Of a DNA stretch of 22,528 bases, positions 5,985 through 17,452 are shown piece by piece (position 1 is the first letter of the stretch; every line of letters begins with the position of its first letter). The notes beneath the pieces were generated by a model. The model worked only from the letters and a program-made list of their open reading frames with translations. It was not told the DNA's origin and made no database searches. Position numbers and translations under genes: made by a program. The DNA is from a virus. The stretch is from positions 1 through 22,528 of the IMG/VR virus record IMGVR_UViG_3300009474_000704. The stretch is one strand, 5' to 3'.

Positions 5985-6236
5985 TTATTTGTTGGAGTTG
6001 GTTGGACGTTTCCGTGTGGACCGCTTTTTGGCGGCCTTCTTTTTGTCGCATTCCTCACACGGTTCGTTTTTGTCCTCACACGGACACGGACGTGACGGTG
6101 GCGGATCGGTGACGGTCGGGTGGTGAATGGCGACGCCCGCGTCAATGAGTTCATGTCCCAACTTGGCGTCAACCAAAATGGTGTGGCCTACTGGCCACGA
6201 ACGTCCTTCAACGGGTGCGATTGTTTGGATTTTCAC
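5985..6236 (-). CDS. Small Cys-cluster, Lys-rich-tail protein (unknown)
   Basis: An 83-residue protein that I do not recognise as a named family. The start is GTG at 6236; no in-frame ATG gives a better N-terminus. The GTG is supported because it lies exactly 33 nt after the 19-nt element, as does the portal ATG. Residues 1-45 look like a small folded domain (MKIQTIAPVEGRSWPVGHTI...DAKLGHELIDAGVAIHHP). Then comes a Pro-rich linker, four cysteines spaced C-x-C-x6-C-x2-C (positions 51, 53, 60, 63), and a basic tail (KKKAAKKRSTRKRP). The cysteine spacing could bind a metal ion. Genes at this position in related phages are often small unannotated head-tail or tail proteins. Confidence 0.75.
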   Translation of the reverse strand: MKIQTIAPVEGRSWPVGHTILVDAKLGHELIDAGVAIHHPTVTDPPPSRPCPCEDKNEPCEECDKKKAAKKRSTRKRPTNSNK

Positions 6237-6269: not shown

Positions 6270-6288
6270 CGTTGACGTTGTCAAGTTC
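6270..6288 (-). promoter_or_regulatory. Late-promoter-like 19-nt element, copy B
   Basis: The minus strand reads GAACTTGACAACGTCAACG, identical to copy A at 11464-11482 except for one base (A for G at position 10). It contains an imperfect inverted repeat (TTGAC...GTCAA). It lies exactly 33 nt before the GTG at 6236, as copy A does before the portal ATG. I read it as a phage-specific promoter or activator/repressor site for the tail module. Confidence 0.6.
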
Positions 6289-10176: not shown

Positions 10177-11430
10177 TTACTGGTTTGAATCACCCATTTC
10201 GGTGAGTTTGTCGCCGTACGCCTCGGCGGAACCCAACGGGATTTGGTTGACCTGAACGAAATGTTGGTCACCCATTTCCCCAATGCCATTGAGGTCCTCG
10301 GCCTTTCTCACTTCGTTGATGGACATGAACCCGTGTTGGATGGCGGTGGCGTAGTATTCGCGGCGTGAATCGAGGTCGCCGCGCAACAATGACCGCATGT
10401 CAAAACGGGTGTGGAATTCACCGCGCTCACGTTCGGGGATCAACTTTCGGTCGAGTTCCATTTCGAACCGACGCGCCCACGGGATGAGGGTTTGTTGGGT
10501 GAATGCGATGAGGATTTGTTCGACGTTGTTGTACGTCGTGGCCCCGTCCGCCTGAATGAGGATTGGCGGGATGCCAAAAATTCGGGCGACCTCCTCGACC
10601 TGAAATTTGCGCGTGGCGATGAACTGGGCCTCGTCGGGTGGGATGGTGGACCGTTCAAACTTCAACCCGTGTTCCAAAATCGCCGTTTCATGGGCGTTGT
10701 GGATTCCTTGATGTTGGGCCGACCATGTGTTTTTGAGGCGGAAATACTGGTCGTCCGTCAATGATTTGTCGGTCATGAGGAACCCACCGATGTTTCCACC
10801 CGTCCCAAAAAACCGCGCGCCGTATTCCATCGCCGCGGCGGTGATGCCCAAATTTTCCATGTGGAGGCGGATGGGCGATTTGCCGCGGAAACATTCAAGG
10901 ACAATGAGGTCGTCGGGGTAAAACACGAACCCCGTGTCCGTTTGGCGGAAAATGCGTTGGCCGTCCACGAACTCGGCCCGAATCATTGTCGGATCGAGGG
11001 GGTGCAAATTGGAGGCGCGCCCCGTTACCTCACCCCTTTCGATTTCCGCGTACGCGCAACCGTACATGAGGGCATCCGACAACATGCGTTCGATGAATGT
11101 GAACGACGTGTCGTCACCGTTGGGTTCGGAGTTGACGAGGACAAACGCGGGGTGTTCCTTGGCGAGGACATTTCCATCCGCGGTTTCGCGGTACAGGTTG
11201 AGGGGCAACGACGCGAGGGTGGACGAAATTTTGTTGATGGCCGCGTACACGGCGGACAATGACAACGCGCCATCCTCGGTGATGCCCACGCCCGATTTGG
11301 TGTTCCGACCAAACACACCCATGAATGGGGATTGTGGTGGGTGCGGTACGTTGTGGCGTTGTTCGGCGGTGTCGTTGCCTTTGTTGCGGCGGAACCGCGA
11401 CAACAAATCGAGTTCGAAGGAAAATCGCAT
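10177..11430 (-). CDS. Portal protein (HK97 family)
   Basis: A 417-residue protein with clear HK97/phage-portal features: GITEDGALSLSAVYAAINKISSTLASLPLNLY (the 'a...savyaci..is..ia.lpl..y' motif, ~50-80), FIERMLSDALMYGCAYAEI, LHPLDPTMIR, and DDLIVLECFRG.SPIRLHMENLG. Further on are FGTGGNIGGFLMTDKSLTDDQ, RKFQVEEVARIFGIPPILI (the 'qeiar.fgvPp.ll' motif) and NNVEQILIAFTQQTLIPWARRFEMELDRKL. It forms the dodecameric ring for DNA entry and exit. Start ATG 11430 is preceded by a 110-nt gap with the 19-nt element (copy A), so this gene probably begins a separate transcript from the terminase genes. Confidence 0.97.
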   Translation of the reverse strand: MRFSFELDLLSRFRRNKGNDTAEQRHNVPHPPQSPFMGVFGRNTKSGVGITEDGALSLSAVYAAINKISSTLASLPLNLYRETADGNVLAKEHPAFVLVNSEPNGDDTSFTFIERMLSDALMYGCAYAEIERGEVTGRASNLHPLDPTMIRAEFVDGQRIFRQTDTGFVFYPDDLIVLECFRGKSPIRLHMENLGITAAAMEYGARFFGTGGNIGGFLMTDKSLTDDQYFRLKNTWSAQHQGIHNAHETAILEHGLKFERSTIPPDEAQFIATRKFQVEEVARIFGIPPILIQADGATTYNNVEQILIAFTQQTLIPWARRFEMELDRKLIPERERGEFHTRFDMRSLLRGDLDSRREYYATAIQHGFMSINEVRKAEDLNGIGEMGDQHFVQVNQIPLGSAEAYGDKLTEMGDSNQ

Positions 11431-11449
11431 TGGGGCGAAATTCCCTCAC

Positions 11450-11478
11450 CAAATACGCGGGGGCGTTGACGTCGTCAA
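11450..11478 (-). promoter_or_regulatory. Candidate portal-operon promoter (TTG-N18-CGTATTTG)
   Basis: On the minus strand TTG (11478-11476) is followed after 18 nt by CGTATTTG (11457-11450), a partial match to the Bacteroidota -7 box TAnnTTTG. The TTG lies inside the palindrome of copy A. The start codon follows 19 nt later. The match is incomplete, so a phage-encoded activator or sigma factor is possible. Confidence 0.35.
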
Positions 11479-11482
11479 GTTC
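11464..11482 (-). promoter_or_regulatory. Late-promoter-like 19-nt element, copy A
   Basis: The minus strand reads GAACTTGACGACGTCAACG. It contains a perfect inverted repeat, TTGACG-A-CGTCAA. The same element with one change is at 6270-6288. Both end exactly 33 nt before a start codon (here the portal ATG at 11430). It is likely a promoter/activator element for the head module. Confidence 0.6.
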
Positions 11483-11540: not shown

Positions 11541-11837
11541 ATGAAAATCGTTTTGACACTTTTTTGTGTGGGGATGCTTTCCACACTGGCATTGGACCCA
11601 TGTTCGGAGTCCGACAAACACCAAGCCGAATACCTGAAAACGCAATCCGCCGTCAGTTTTGGCCTGTACATGCACAACATGGCGTTGTGTTTTGGGACGG
11701 AATCGACAATTGACATGCCTTCATGCCGCCGCGCTGAAACGCACCGCCTCAACTACTTGAAATCAATGAAACCATCGGACATGAACAAATACATGACCGA
11801 GTTGGAATACTGCATGGACAAAAACAAAAAACGCTGA
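11541..11837 (+). CDS. Small secreted cysteine protein (moron 1, unknown)
   Basis: A 98-residue protein with a clear signal peptide: MKIVLTLFCVGMLSTLALDP, with likely cleavage near residues 17-18. The mature part holds four cysteines (positions 21, 50, 62, 91), enough for two disulfides. It is otherwise charged and helical (SESDKHQAEYLKTQ..., THRLNYLKSMKPSDMNKYM). No family was recognised. The ATG at 11541 follows an A-rich leader (AACGAAAACCAAATCAA), typical of Bacteroidota genes without Shine-Dalgarno. It is encoded opposite to the surrounding virion genes and ends 3 bases before the TM2 gene, so the three plus-strand genes probably form one transcript. The protein should be exported to the periplasm. 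Confidence 0.85.
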   Translation: MKIVLTLFCVGMLSTLALDPCSESDKHQAEYLKTQSAVSFGLYMHNMALCFGTESTIDMPSCRRAETHRLNYLKSMKPSDMNKYMTELEYCMDKNKKR

Positions 11838-11840
11838 ACG

Positions 11841-12107
11841 ATGGACACTTCAAAAATGCTGGCATACCAAAACGACGCTTGTAACAAAACGACAACGTGG
11901 TTGCTTTTCCTTTTCCTCGGTTGGTCATACGGATCAATGGGAAAAATCGGCCTTCAAATTCTGTACTACATCACATTTGGTGGGCTTGGCGTGTGGACCC
12001 TGTTTCGTTTGTTCACGCTCAACGGGGCCATCAAGGAATACAACCGAGGCGTCGCGGCGCGTGTGGGAATGGACAACCAAGAAATGGCCGCGTTGGGCCT
12101 CATGTGA
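11841..12107 (+). CDS. TM2-domain-like inner membrane protein (moron 2)
   Basis: An 88-residue protein with two hydrophobic segments, about 19-33 (TWLLFLFLGWSYGSMG) and 38-60 (LQILYYITFGGLGVWTLFRLF), joined by a short Gly-containing turn. The order 'K..tWLL.lFLG....S.GKiGlQilyyiT.GGlGvWtl.rlf' follows the TM2 domain pattern (two helices around a Gly-rich turn, then GG.G.W). The C-terminal ~25 residues are cytosolic-looking and polar. TM2 proteins are common in bacteria and some lie in prophages, with poorly known roles. A superinfection-exclusion role here is inference. It starts 3 bases after moron 1 and ends 1 base before the lipoprotein gene. Its leucine codons (many CTT/CTG) differ from the TTG/CTC preference of the virion genes. 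Confidence 0.85.
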   Translation: MDTSKMLAYQNDACNKTTTWLLFLFLGWSYGSMGKIGLQILYYITFGGLGVWTLFRLFTLNGAIKEYNRGVAARVGMDNQEMAALGLM

Positions 12108-12108
12108 A

Positions 12109-12669
12109 ATGAAACACACGTACATCATCCCCGCCATTTGTTTGGCTTTGATGTCCTGCGGTGGGGCAACCAATGACACCGCAAACAATGTTGAACCCGA
12201 GGTTGTCGAGGCCCCAAAAACGGATGACGAATTGATCCGCGAAACCATCGACGCCACGTTGAACACCATGTTGAACGACCCGTCATCGTACGAATTCGTT
12301 TCCCTCGACCTACAAAAGGAATTCACCTTGGGTGAAAACATCCAATACCGTCGGGACATGTTCAACGGTTGGAGTACAACCCCACAATCGGAAAAGGATT
12401 TGTGGAATGCCGTGTTGGATTCACTTGAAACGGTCCACGCCAATGAGTTGGACCGCATCATGGGCCGAACCTACATCATGAAATACCGCGCCAACAATGC
12501 GTTTGGGGCGTTGGTCATGAATGAAACGTACGTCCAAATCGAGGGTGATTCGCCCAATTTTGAGGTCGCCAAAATGACAACGGAACGGAAAAAACTGTTT
12601 CTCAACTTGGGTGACATTCCAAATTGGACCGCCATTTACACCAATGTGAAATCGAGGTTGGACGATTAA
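12109..12669 (+). CDS. Lipoprotein (moron 3, unknown)
   Basis: A 186-residue protein with a lipoprotein signal: MKHTYIIPAICLALMSCGG, with lipobox L-M-S-C and the lipidated Cys at residue 17. An acidic, flexible linker follows (NDTANNVEPEVVEAPKTDDE). The folded part contains DPSSYEFVSLDL near residue 60 and YIMKYRANNAFGALVMNETYVQIEG near residue 125. A 'dPdSYef ... Y.v.yRa.N.fG' pattern occurs in Bacteroidota secreted proteins of unknown function. The ATG at 12109 is chosen because it gives the lipobox; the frame is open upstream, but inside the TM2 gene. It would be anchored in the inner or outer membrane. Its TAA (12667-12669) shares TTA-A with the stop of the convergent 82-residue gene. Confidence 0.87.
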   Translation: MKHTYIIPAICLALMSCGGATNDTANNVEPEVVEAPKTDDELIRETIDATLNTMLNDPSSYEFVSLDLQKEFTLGENIQYRRDMFNGWSTTPQSEKDLWNAVLDSLETVHANELDRIMGRTYIMKYRANNAFGALVMNETYVQIEGDSPNFEVAKMTTERKKLFLNLGDIPNWTAIYTNVKSRLDD

Positions 12670-12914
12670 AGGTCGGACCGTCGTTTGTTGTTCCAACGGC
12701 TCAAAACCGAGGCGAAAACCTCATGGCCGTTGTACCGTGTACGTCCGAAAATGGACATGTGGTCGTGTTCGACCGACCAATACGCGTTGGCGCGTGTTTC
12801 GTGGTGTTTGAGGCGGACAAAGTATTCGTCCACGAACCCGTCGCGGGTTGACAATTTGGGGGCCAAATCCAAAAGGCGGACAAGCTGTTTGGGGTCTTTG
12901 GGTGGGATGCTCAC
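12666..12914 (-). CDS. 82-residue protein after terminase (unknown)
   Basis: A short gene directly after the large terminase: its GTG start (12914-12912) overlaps the terminase TGA as GTGA, a coupled stop-start. The 82-residue product starts SIPPKDPKQLVRLLDLAPKLS and contains RANAYWSVEHDHMSIFGRTRYNG, ending with a basic KRRSDL. I do not recognise a family. The upstream extension of the frame (to 13109) is Arg-rich and lies within terminase, so it is rejected. It is the last gene of the terminase transcript and converges with the lipoprotein gene, their stops sharing the palindromic TTAA. A head or packaging role is possible from position only. Confidence 0.75.
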   Translation of the reverse strand: MSIPPKDPKQLVRLLDLAPKLSTRDGFVDEYFVRLKHHETRANAYWSVEHDHMSIFGRTRYNGHEVFASVLSRWNNKRRSDL

Positions 12915-14611
12915 AATGTTCGGATGATGTAGTTGTCGGGGATGGTGTTTTGGGGGGTTGATTGTTCCGTCATGGCTTGACCGATGGCCATGACCAAGGC
13001 CACGACGCCGTCGATTTTGTCGCCGCTTTTTTCTTTGTCGGGTTTCAAATTGGATGATGGGTCCATCCTCAACACGACGTTCCCGAACATCCATCGGAGG
13101 ACGGGACAACCTCCGTGATGTATTCGGCCCTCACTCATGAGGCGTTCCAATTCCTTGGTGGGTGCTGACATGCTGACAAACCCTTGGCCAAATGGGGCCA
13201 TTGACATCCCGTCCGATGAAAGGTTCAACACACATTGCGATGAGTTGAAACGGTCAAACGCGATGGACTGGATGTTGTACCGTGTGGCGAGGGACTGGGC
13301 GTCGTACTTGACGCGCCCGTCCTCGACGTGGTAACCCGTGACAAACCGTCGGATTGAATCGTAGTCCGTGACGTTGCCATCGGTGATGAACACGTTGTCG
13401 AGGTTTTGGAATTGGTCGTACATGTGCGACCCCGTGGACTGGATGCGTTTTTCAACCGTGTCCGCGGGCAACCAAAACCATGACCGTGTGATGTATCCAC
13501 CTTCGTGGGGCCACACCAAATTCAACGCGGTGATGTCGCCAACGGAGGCGAGGTCAAGCCCACCCCAACACGGTTGTTGGGGGTCGGGTTCGATGTCGGT
13601 GTCACCCAACATGACGATGTCGTCGGGAATCCATGTCGCCGATGACGACACCCATTCGTTCATGTGTTTGGTCCTGAAATTGACCAACATGGACCCCCCG
13701 TAGTTGCGGGCCTGTTGGAGTTCCTTGGCCAAATACGATTGGGGGATGGACACGTCCAATGACGGGTTCGCCTTGATCCACACGTCGGGGTCGGTGAAAT
13801 CGTCGTCGTCGTCGAGGGTGTACACCAACGCGAACAACGAATCATCGGTTTTGATTCCCTCCAACACCTCACACGATGATTTCATCATGTTGAAACACGG
13901 TCCGTTGATGTTGAACCCTGCGGTGGTGATGATGGCGATGAGGGGGTTGGTTCGTGCGCCTGTTGCGGACTTCAACACGTTCAACAAATCGGCGTCCTTA
14001 TGTGCGTGGAACTCGTCGAGGACCGCACACGACACGGACAAACCGTCGGCGGACTTGGCATCCGACGACAACGGTTCGGCGGTTGAATGCGTGGATTTGA
14101 CCGTGAGGTTGTTTCGAAGTACGGTGACCCGCTTTTTGAGTGCGGGCGACGCCTTGACCATTCGGGTGGCCTCGTCATGGGCGATTTTGGCTTGGTCCCT
14201 TTTGGTGGCCGCGAACACAACCGAGGCGGCGGGTTCGTTGTCGAAATCCAACATGGCCAAACCAATCCCCGCCAACAATTGGGTTTTCCCGTTTTTGCGT
14301 CCGACCTGACAATACAGGGTCGAAAACCGCCGCGATCCGTCGTCCCATTTCCAACCGAAAATGGACGCGATGGTGAATTGTTGCCACGGCAAAAGGTGAA
14401 ACGGTTGTCCCGCCCAACGGCCTTTGGTGTGGCTCAAAAACTGTTCGAAAAACTGGATGAAACGGTTGGCGTCAACCTCATCAAACCACAACCCGCGTTC
14501 ATGCCCATCCACCAAATCATTGAGGTGGCGTTGGCATGCAAGGCGGACCCACTTGGACGCGACGATGGTTCCATCAACCACGTCGTGGGCGTACTGGTTC
14601 CACGGCGTCAT
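12911..14611 (-). CDS. terL: Terminase large subunit
   Basis: A 566-residue packaging motor. Walker A is GRKNGKT at 104-110, the Terminase_1/HK97-type form. Walker B is AVLDE at 196-200, followed by FHAHKD. The coupling motif is TTAG at 229-232. The C-terminal RNase H-like nuclease starts with GLDLAS (Asp353), and the last acidic residues lie in GDKIDGVVALVMAIGQAM (near 535). The N-terminal half cleaves ATP to drive DNA into the portal, and the C-terminal half cuts concatemers. The ATG at 14611 overlaps the TerS stop (ATGA). Full family length, no sign of damage. Confidence 0.97.
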   Translation of the reverse strand: MTPWNQYAHDVVDGTIVASKWVRLACQRHLNDLVDGHERGLWFDEVDANRFIQFFEQFLSHTKGRWAGQPFHLLPWQQFTIASIFGWKWDDGSRRFSTLYCQVGRKNGKTQLLAGIGLAMLDFDNEPAASVVFAATKRDQAKIAHDEATRMVKASPALKKRVTVLRNNLTVKSTHSTAEPLSSDAKSADGLSVSCAVLDEFHAHKDADLLNVLKSATGARTNPLIAIITTAGFNINGPCFNMMKSSCEVLEGIKTDDSLFALVYTLDDDDDFTDPDVWIKANPSLDVSIPQSYLAKELQQARNYGGSMLVNFRTKHMNEWVSSSATWIPDDIVMLGDTDIEPDPQQPCWGGLDLASVGDITALNLVWPHEGGYITRSWFWLPADTVEKRIQSTGSHMYDQFQNLDNVFITDGNVTDYDSIRRFVTGYHVEDGRVKYDAQSLATRYNIQSIAFDRFNSSQCVLNLSSDGMSMAPFGQGFVSMSAPTKELERLMSEGRIHHGGCPVLRWMFGNVVLRMDPSSNLKPDKEKSGDKIDGVVALVMAIGQAMTEQSTPQNTIPDNYIIRTL

Positions 14612-16059: not shown

Positions 16060-17397
16060 TCACATCCCTTGGATGGTGAAACCGCCTTTGGGATTGTGGA
16101 CCACGACCGAACCCGTGGGTTTGTTGTTGTCGTCGAGTTGGATGACCACGTTGAACGCCACTTGGTTTTGTCCGTTGATCATGTGGGGCAACACCTCGGT
16201 CCGTGGCAACTGGACCCAAAAACCTCCGATGTCGGCGTTGGGTGGTGTACCGTCGTCACGTTTGATGGTGACGCCGCTTCCCAATTTGTGGTTTTGTTCC
16301 TGTGGCACTTCCACCAATCGCCCATCCTCGGTGTGGTGTAACTCCATCCCCTTTTGCCGTGGGCCGCTGAAATTCAAAAATTCGCTCGGTTGGTGTTGCG
16401 CCTTCGAAATGGCCTCCAACCTCGTCAGGTCCTCACGGTTTTGTTGGCTCGGTGTCTTTGCAACCTCACCATCGCGGAATTGGTTGGGGTCGGTGGGGAC
16501 GGGCATTTCGTCGAAGTACTGTTCCGCGTTGTTCATGTGTTCCCAGTACTCACGGGCGGTTTTCGCCTTGGGCGACGGTTCCTCGGTTTCCTCGTTGGCG
16601 TAACCGTACGCGGCCAACTCAACGTCCATGTCGTATTCCCACACGTTGTGTTGGTCCACGCTGAATTCGTCGATTCCCAACAATGGCATTTGGTCGAGGG
16701 TCTTGACACCGCCATCAAACGTTTCAATGGCCGTGAACCAATCCTCGGACACGCCTGACATTTCGTCCACGTATTCGCGCCCCTCCTTTCCCAAACGCTC
16801 ACACACGTATTTGTCCCGAGGGGCCAAAATCAAATCGTTGTTCCATGCGGTGAGGCCATGCGTGAACATGCGGGCGAAATGCTTGGTGAACACGGTGTAT
16901 TCGTTCGCCTCGATGGATTCGCACACACCACGGATGAACCCGTTGGTGACGGGCCTGTACCGTTCCTCTTTGATGGCCTGTTGCCGCTTGGGGTTGTCGG
17001 TGGGCAATTGCAACACCTCGTCGGTCACGTAACCCGAGGACGTCACGTTGTTCCAAGTTTGGCGGGTTTTGCCCGTGAGTTTGCGGATGCCCTCCCAACT
17101 GAACCCGTGGTCCTGCATGTTCGCCAACAAAGTGATGGCCCACATGCGTCGGATGTGGAATTCCATTTCGGCGCGTTCCTCGTTTGATGGCTTGACCAAT
17201 TCACCCCGCACCCATACGGATCGGCCAACGGTCAACGCGGCCACGTGTGGGTTGCGCGCGCTTTTAATTGCCTCACGTTTGGCGATGGACTGGGGGACGA
17301 TGCCTTTGACCGCATCGGCCACGGTGTGGCCCATTTCCTCCATGTCCTCCCGCGCCTCCACCCACGTCCTGTTTTTGTTCGCGTCGTTGTTGCTCAT
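16060..17397 (-). CDS. 445-residue regulator-like protein with HTH-like segment (unknown)
   Basis: I do not recognise a named family. The start ATG at 17397 (MSNNDANKNRTWVEARED) fits the promoter 25 nt upstream; the frame extends to 17484, but through that promoter. A helical region at residues ~75-125 ends in FSWEGIRKLTGKTRQTWNNV, resembling a helix-turn-helix with the recognition helix at TGKTRQTWNN. Residues ~135-230 are mixed alpha (RYRPVTNGFIRGVCESIEANEYTVFTKHFARMF). An acidic linker (EETEEPSPKAK) follows, and the C-terminus is beta-rich (GGFWVQLPRTEVLPHM...AFNVVIQLDDNN). It is divergent from the early operon, as lysogeny regulators often are, and its promoter contains an inverted repeat. 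A repressor or switch role is inference; it is longer than typical CI proteins. Confidence 0.78.
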   Translation of the reverse strand: MSNNDANKNRTWVEAREDMEEMGHTVADAVKGIVPQSIAKREAIKSARNPHVAALTVGRSVWVRGELVKPSNEERAEMEFHIRRMWAITLLANMQDHGFSWEGIRKLTGKTRQTWNNVTSSGYVTDEVLQLPTDNPKRQQAIKEERYRPVTNGFIRGVCESIEANEYTVFTKHFARMFTHGLTAWNNDLILAPRDKYVCERLGKEGREYVDEMSGVSEDWFTAIETFDGGVKTLDQMPLLGIDEFSVDQHNVWEYDMDVELAAYGYANEETEEPSPKAKTAREYWEHMNNAEQYFDEMPVPTDPNQFRDGEVAKTPSQQNREDLTRLEAISKAQHQPSEFLNFSGPRQKGMELHHTEDGRLVEVPQEQNHKLGSGVTIKRDDGTPPNADIGGFWVQLPRTEVLPHMINGQNQVAFNVVIQLDDNNKPTGSVVVHNPKGGFTIQGM

Positions 17398-17421: not shown

Positions 17422-17452
17422 CAAATGTACTGACGTTTTTGTCAGTTTCCAA
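17422..17452 (-). promoter_or_regulatory. Bacteroidota-type promoter of the regulator-like gene
   Basis: The minus strand reads TTG (17452-17450), then 20 nt, then TACATTTG (17429-17422), a full match to the -7 consensus TAnnTTTG. Transcription would start near 17415, giving a leader of about 18 nt before the ATG at 17397. Confidence 0.7.
17429..17446. promoter_or_regulatory. Operator-like inverted repeat inside the promoter spacer
   Basis: ACTGAC (17429-17434) and GTCAGT (17441-17446) form a perfect 6-bp inverted repeat across 6 nt, lying between the -33 and -7 boxes. A protein bound there would block RNA polymerase, suggesting repression or autoregulation of the 16060-17397 gene. Confidence 0.6.

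What the first reader, a model, noticed from the sequence alone, without database searches (positions are those of the whole stretch)
11541..12669. Three-gene plus-strand moron: secreted 4-Cys protein, TM2-like membrane protein and lipoprotein inside the virion gene block
Seen: three tightly packed plus-strand genes (3-base and 1-base gaps) lie between the terminase transcript (ending 12666) and the portal transcript (starting near 11443), both on the minus strand. Their products together cover periplasm, inner membrane and lipid-anchored surface: a signal-peptide protein with four Cys, a two-helix TM2-type protein, and a lipoprotein with lipobox LMSC. Known: phage morons sit at transcript borders, are expressed in lysogens, and often change the cell envelope or block superinfection. 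Inference: the three may form one envelope complex that stops DNA entry of related phages or alters the host surface. I know of no named system with this trio.
Basis: partly seen in the sequence, partly recalled or inferred. Interest (0 to 1): 0.78.

Follow-up and report, generated by a model that had tools for sequence, protein, structure and literature searches.

The report
Phage cargo genes likely excluding rivals
Three small genes slotted backwards into the virion genes of a Bacteroidota phage encode cell-envelope proteins, and one belongs to a cross-phylum phage protein family whose coliphage 186 member is recorded as blocking phage infection, so the cassette probably keeps competing phages out of the infected cell.

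Summary
In detail: three packed plus-strand genes (98 aa secreted, four mature Cys; 88 aa TM2-like; 186 aa lipoprotein) lie antisense inside the late block. Among close relatives, at least eight have nothing at this site, and three unrelated occupied modules carry other antisense genes. Of 11 cargo genes, 10 pass a crude signal-peptide/membrane rule (the 11th is the TM2-like protein), against 1 of 28 other window genes. Insertion is always between an 82-aa gene and a conserved dyad before the portal gene. A sister phage has a fourth cargo gene. Each of the other three modules has a Bacteroidota-type promoter; the window's own has none recognisable. The relatives' endolysin lies elsewhere, so this is not a lysis cassette. 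The lipoprotein domain (DPxSYExV ... YRAKNxFGA; no Pfam or PADLOC model) also occurs behind phage repressors (phi AR29, L152) and, with a two-helix membrane hairpin, in coliphage 186 Orf97, whose GenBank note reads "expression from plasmid blocks 186 infection". Best reading: an envelope moron whose lipoprotein, perhaps with the TM2 protein, excludes superinfecting phages. Moron status is well supported; exclusion is inferred by distant homology. The full trio recurs only in the sister phage.

The parts
11541..11837 (+). cargo gene 1: 98-aa secreted protein, four Cys in the mature part, no relative outside the sister phage
   Evidence: no Pfam/NCBIfam/PADLOC hit (3, 68, 70), no phage or Bacteroidota genome hit (50, 56); AF2 low confidence, helical (83)
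11841..12107 (+). cargo gene 2: 88-aa TM2-like predicted two-helix membrane protein
   Evidence: PF05154 17.5 bits, below cut-off 27.9; phrog_22651 1.5e-5, phrog_32725 3.9e-5
12109..12669 (+). cargo gene 3: 186-aa lipoprotein with a domain homologous to coliphage 186 Orf97 C-terminal domain
   Evidence: phrog_21933 2.1e-6; phi AR29 1e-16
12666..12914 (-). 82-aa conserved gene overlapping the terL stop; cargo is always inserted just after its stop codon
   Evidence: present in all close relatives read here
11464..11481 (-). conserved dyad AACTTGACnnnGTCAACS 35 nt before the portal ATG; fixed portal-side border of all cargo insertions
6270..6287 (-). second exact copy of the dyad, also 35 nt before a late gene (5985-6236)
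12104..12109 (.). point where sister phage L002 carries a fourth cargo gene (455-bp indel, 145-aa secreted protein)
   Evidence: alignment
12911..14611 (-). terminase large subunit (upstream flank)
10177..11430 (-). portal protein (downstream flank)

Best explanation
The insert is a moron cassette of cell-envelope proteins in a variable site between two late gene groups of a temperate Bacteroidota phage (shown by comparison with empty and differently occupied relatives). Its most likely job is superinfection exclusion (inferred). The lipoprotein is tethered in the envelope and exposes an alpha/beta domain homologous to the C-terminal domain of coliphage 186 Orf97, which in 186 sits on a two-helix membrane hairpin. 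The neighbouring TM2-like protein may supply a comparable membrane part, so the pair may be a split version of Orf97 (inferred from gene neighbourhood). I propose that it interferes with DNA entry of related phages at the inner membrane or periplasm. The 4-Cys protein is a separate or accessory secreted protein of unknown role.
For: Empty site in L007, L009, L042, L013-L016 and L046 (280-300 bp), occupied in window/L002, L006, L010 and L012 (L130 carries the L010 cargo). Cargo envelope-like 10/11 vs 1/28 other window genes. Fixed insertion border. Own promoters in three other modules (background expectation 0.014). Lipoprotein family: phi AR29 prophage L140, downstream of an S24 repressor with a 55-aa lipoprotein and a two-TM protein; L152, 17 bp downstream of an S24 repressor; P. 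gingivalis prophage; about 1% of Bacteroidota genomes. An HMM built without any Orf97-type protein recovers the Orf97 family as the only further relatives among 16,733 six-frame ORFs at E<=1: LPM4 3.6e-10, VHML 6e-5, 186 Orf97 8.6e-4; hhalign 94.6% over 27 columns; phrog_21933 hits VHML and LPM4. GenBank U32222 note on Orf97: 'expression from plasmid blocks 186 infection'. Orf97 family members lie beside gene A in P2-like phages, the A-Q locus described as an anti-phage hotspot (PMC9122126).
Against: The functional link rests on distant homology (window to 186 Orf97, two short motifs) and on one GenBank note without a paper found. The Orf97-type loci were fetched through intermediates, so they were present in the searched set by design. 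186 orf97 lies on an SOS transcript, so exclusion there may act during induction, not lysogeny. The window cassette has no recognisable promoter. The three genes recur together only in the sister phage. No PADLOC model matches convincingly. Pairing of a TM2 protein with this lipoprotein was not seen elsewhere.
Confidence: 0.55

Rival explanations
1. Envelope moron for host fitness, not exclusion: the secreted and lipid-anchored proteins change the lysogen's surface (adhesion, nutrient or inhibitor binding, stress).
For: Other cargo at the same site includes a FISUMP-domain lipoprotein (PF09603 4.3e-30), an EF-hand-like secreted protein and a SHOCT-tailed secreted protein, none with an exclusion link; gene 1 is unique.
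Against: The lipoprotein domain recurs in temperate phages of several phyla, sits by repressors/integrases, and its 186 relative is annotated as blocking infection.
Confidence: 0.28
2. Exclusion acting during lytic growth: the cassette is made in induced or infected cells and stops secondary infection of a cell already producing phage.
For: 186 orf97 lies on the LexA-controlled p95 transcript with tum; the window cassette abuts a putative late control dyad.
Against: Relatives in L140 and L152 follow the repressor gene; three other cargo modules at this site carry host-type promoters.
Confidence: 0.2
3. Lysis cassette: the TM2-like protein is a holin and the lipoprotein an outer-membrane spanin.
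For: Small two-helix protein next to a lipoprotein; the window ends inside the tail gene so its own lysis genes are not seen.
Against: Longer records of relatives have an Amidase_2 endolysin after the tail genes; most relatives lack the cassette; it is antisense to late genes.
Confidence: 0.03
4. Virion or morphogenesis proteins encoded on the opposite strand.
For: Position between terminase and portal genes.
Against: Relatives with ~83-86% identical portal and terL lack them entirely; signal peptide and lipobox point to export.
Confidence: 0.03

Closest known systems
Coliphage 186 Orf97 (phrog_3403; U32222.1 29604-30335) and P2-like relatives
   Same: Homologous C-terminal domain; envelope-anchored by sequence; accessory gene in a variable phage locus; two-helix membrane hairpin in the same chain (186) vs a TM2-like gene beside it (window)
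   Different: One chain of 243 aa, no lipobox, SOS-controlled transcript, different place in the genome, ~80-aa domain without the helical insert
Prevotella phage phi AR29 lipoprotein AAB32259 (annotated 'excisionase homolog')
   Same: Full-length homologue (29% identity, 1e-16), lipobox, next to a two-TM protein
   Different: Lies after the repressor next to attP; partner membrane protein unrelated to TM2
Gordonia phage Bunnybear gp15
   Same: Small lipoprotein on the strand opposite to the virion genes, inside the structural block; weak match to the same domain
   Different: Between tail assembly chaperone and tape measure genes; single gene; HMM E 0.069 only
Ltp of S. thermophilus phage TP-J34
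   Same: Phage lipoprotein in the envelope that stops DNA injection and is expressed in the lysogen (PMC3952083)
   Different: Different family; no Pfam match of the window protein
P22 SieA
   Same: Prophage envelope protein blocking DNA entry of related phages (PMC10883804)
   Different: Unrelated inner-membrane protein

Membership tests
Phage moron / lysogenic conversion cassette | Accessory: absent from close relatives at the same site | tested here: met
   at least eight relatives with a 280-300 bp interval, others with different cargo
Phage moron / lysogenic conversion cassette | Own promoter | tested here: inconclusive
   TTG-N18-22-TAnnTTTG in the L006, L010 and L012 modules, none in the window or L002
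Phage moron / lysogenic conversion cassette | Expression in the lysogen | not testable with these tools
   no RNA data; homologues in L140 and L152 lie downstream of the repressor
Phage moron / lysogenic conversion cassette | Base composition differing from the phage | tested here: met
   48.5% vs 55.8% GC, lowest 0.7% of windows
Orf97 (186) domain superfamily | Both sequence motifs in order (DPxSYExV, then FRxxNxxGA) | tested here: met
Orf97 (186) domain superfamily | Membrane tether next to the domain | tested here: met
   lipobox in the window protein; TM hairpin in 186 Orf97 read from sequence
Orf97 (186) domain superfamily | Blocks phage infection | not testable with these tools
   only a GenBank note for 186
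TM2 domain (PF05154) | Pfam gathering score | tested here: not met
   17.5 vs 27.9 bits; GHRFY motif missing
T4 Imm-type superinfection immunity (PF14373) | Profile match | tested here: not met
   no hit at E<=1
Ltp lipoprotein (PF07553) | Profile match | tested here: not met
   no hit at E<=1
Holin/spanin lysis cassette | Sole lysis genes, conserved in relatives | tested here: not met
   endolysin elsewhere; cassette absent in most relatives

The most novel reading that the evidence does not exclude
The lipoprotein defines an unnamed, cross-phylum family of envelope-tethered superinfection-exclusion domains (phrog_21933, phrog_3403, phrog_2320 and relatives) found in phages of Bacteroidota, Pseudomonadota, Helicobacter and Actinomycetota, in which the membrane part may be fused (186 Orf97) or split into a neighbouring gene; and the terL-portal gap of these Bacteroidota phages is a dedicated hot spot for swapping envelope genes in antisense.
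Probability: 0.45. Interest if true: 0.78.

Novelty: new variant of a known kind. Interest (0 to 1): 0.62.

Why it matters
Phage exclusion in Bacteroidota is little studied, and most small phage envelope proteins have no assigned role. The finding links an unannotated lipoprotein family, through coliphage 186 Orf97, to a recorded infection block, so one simple plating test in E. coli with an existing laboratory phage can show whether this uncatalogued family is an exclusion family. It also shows a small swap site for envelope genes between the terminase and portal genes, flanked by a conserved control-like dyad, where more such genes can be looked for.

Tried and rejected
Close-relative searches with the lipoprotein and TM2 protein in viral contigs found only the sister L002. 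Plasmids: none with the AR29 lipoprotein. PDB by sequence and by fold: nothing significant. The 4-Cys protein model is too poor to use (mean pLDDT 54.6) and was not searched by fold. NCBIfam: no relevant hit; PADLOC: only weak hits judged chance. The weak Cor hit of an L006 lipoprotein (phrog_1119 E 0.3) was dismissed as signal-peptide similarity. Sigma-70 scan was at chance level and the terminator scan only slightly above it. Genome scan with terL: no close prophage in sequenced hosts, best hits ~44% in Bacteroidales, then mostly Firmicutes, so the host species stays unknown. A minus-strand ORF (11934-12461) overlapping genes 2 and 3 was rejected as a shadow frame because the plus frame has the lipobox and homologues; the substitution counts there are too few to decide on their own. 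L142 was dismissed as a chance hit. Literature on 186 orf97: none found.

Full report
Observation. The three plus-strand genes are present as described: 11541-11837, 11841-12107 and 12109-12669. The flanking late genes are on the minus strand. The lipoprotein stop codon overlaps the end of an 82-aa gene (12666-12914) that itself overlaps the terL stop. Compared with the near-identical phage L002 (~98% identity; terL protein 99.8%), the three genes carry 15 synonymous and 3 non-synonymous differences, 16 of 18 at third codon positions, so the frames are coding. The window is a whole 22,528-bp IMG/VR record; it is cut inside a tail gene at the left and ends with the integrase gene at the right.

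The site. Terminase and portal searches gave many relatives. In the group with terL at least 70% identical, the interval between terL and portal is 280-300 bp and holds only the 82-aa gene in L007, L009, L042, L013, L014, L015, L016 and L046; L132 looks the same where its contig begins. It is enlarged in the window and L002, L006, L010 and L012; L130 carries the L010 cargo. All extra genes run antisense to the late genes. The cargo sets are unrelated: L006 has a 106-aa lipoprotein, a secreted EF-hand-like protein and a FISUMP lipoprotein (PF09603, 4.3e-30); L010 has a secreted protein (phrog_1848, 4.6e-6), a 61-aa membrane protein and an 81-aa lipoprotein; L012 has one secreted protein with a SHOCT-like tail. 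By a crude hydropathy rule 10 of 11 cargo proteins look exported or membrane-bound (the exception is the TM2-like protein) against 1 of 28 other window genes, Fisher 1.8e-7; the rule is home-made, not SignalP, and genes of one cassette are not independent. Cargo GC is lower than the rest in all four modules.

Insertion border and control signals. Cargo lies between the stop of the 82-aa gene and a dyad AACTTGACnnnGTCAACS that stands about 30-50 nt before the portal start in every relative of this group. The close pair L009 (empty) and L010 (occupied) diverges near the end of the 82-aa gene and rejoins at the dyad. The dyad occurs at two places in the window, at the same 35-nt distance before two late genes, and relatives long enough to show it have the same two sites, one of them in L007 with a single mismatch. 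I read it as a late control site (inference). In L006, L010 and L012 the first cargo gene is preceded by TTG-N18-22-TAnnTTTG, the Bacteroidota housekeeping promoter pattern (own knowledge); three such matches were seen where 0.014 were expected. The spacing was set after looking at the sequences, so that probability is optimistic. The window and L002 lack it.

Gene turnover. L002 carries a further 145-aa secreted protein gene exactly between genes 2 and 3, a 455-bp indel without long repeats. So the cassette changes gene by gene, which speaks against an obligatory three-part complex.

What the lipoprotein is. It matches phrog_21933 (2.1e-6) and the phi AR29 protein AAB32259 (1e-16), deposited as 'excisionase homolog' but a lipoprotein by sequence. 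In a prophage copy of AR29 (L140) it follows an S24-type repressor gene, a 55-aa lipoprotein and a two-TM protein. In L152 it lies 17 bp after an S24 repressor; in L149 the domain is joined to two N-terminal hydrophobic helices near an XRE gene; L151 has two copies side by side, one lipid-anchored and one TM-anchored. A P. gingivalis prophage has it among structural genes. Chromosomal occurrence is about 1% of 396 Bacteroidota genomes. The AlphaFold2 model is good outside the first 30 residues (mean pLDDT 79): a helix, then a four-stranded sheet with a helical hairpin inserted after strand 1. Foldseek finds phage proteins, first a Gordonia phage Sidious lipoprotein (E 1.4e-4, probability 1.00), but TM-scores are modest (0.34 by query), and nothing significant in the PDB.

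Link to an infection block. Searching annotated phages with the L149 protein found coliphage 186 Orf97, VHML ORF47 (annotated as similar to 186 orf97), Aeromonas LPM4 beside the integrase, and several P2-like phages. The 186 record says of Orf97: 'expression from plasmid blocks 186 infection'. A profile from the Bacteroidota lipoproteins alone, with the helical insert cut out, recovered the Orf97 family and Bunnybear gp15 and no other new family among 16,733 six-frame ORFs at E<=1: LPM4 3.6e-10, VHML 6e-5, 186 Orf97 8.6e-4, Bunnybear gp15 0.069. Profile-profile comparison gave 94.6% over 27 columns. phrog_21933 itself matches VHML (1.4e-4) and LPM4 (1.3e-7). These loci were chosen by similarity to intermediates, so the chain is transitive, but the profile did not contain them. 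In 186 and P2-like relatives the gene lies after gene A; Rousset et al. describe the A-Q interval of P2-like phages as an anti-phage hotspot that holds old and tin in P2 (PMC9122126).

Mechanism proposed. Shown: envelope-type cargo in a variable site; lipoprotein homologous to the Orf97 domain; 186 Orf97 carries two N-terminal hydrophobic helices before the domain (read from sequence). Inferred: the TM2-like neighbour plays the part of that hairpin; the domain interferes with DNA entry, as P22 SieA (PMC10883804) and TP-J34 Ltp (PMC3952083) do with unrelated proteins. Not known: when the cassette is expressed. 186 orf97 is on an SOS-controlled transcript, whereas the AR29 and L152 homologues follow repressors.

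Alternatives. A lysis cassette is unlikely because longer records of relatives have an Amidase_2 endolysin after the tail genes. Virion proteins are unlikely because relatives with very similar terminase and portal lack them. A host-fitness moron without exclusion remains the main rival.

Novelty. The moron site is a new case of a known kind. The domain family has PHROG entries of unknown function but no Pfam model and no convincing PADLOC match in my searches; its possible role as a wide exclusion family is the most novel reading.

Noticed in passing
window 11464-11481 and 6270-6287 (minus strand): Exact dyad AACTTGACnnnGTCAACS 35 nt before two late genes, conserved at the same two places in relatives; candidate late promoter or operator.
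   Followed up: partly
L003 (S75733.1) 40-801 and 812-1342: Phi AR29 'integrase homolog' has no integrase match and reads as a two-TM protein; 'excisionase homolog' is a lipoprotein. Both look misannotated.
   Followed up: yes
L154 11663-12357 (record G006): The relative with an empty terL-portal gap carries a 138-aa lipoprotein and a DUF4236 protein next to its integrase, so envelope cargo may use a second site.
   Followed up: partly
L162 3435-3740 (Gordonia phage Bunnybear gp15): Small lipoprotein antisense inside the virion block between tail assembly chaperone and tape measure genes, the same layout in an unrelated phage.
   Followed up: partly
L002 863-1300: Fourth secreted cargo gene present in the sister phage and absent from the window.
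   Followed up: yes
L149 7653-8240: The domain joined to two N-terminal hydrophobic helices in one protein near an XRE regulator gene.
   Followed up: partly
L010 4033-4542: Secreted cargo protein of phrog_1848 (4.6e-6), unknown function.
   Followed up: no
window 17422-17452 (minus strand): Only full Bacteroidota-type promoter match in the window, before the gene at 16060-17397.
   Followed up: no
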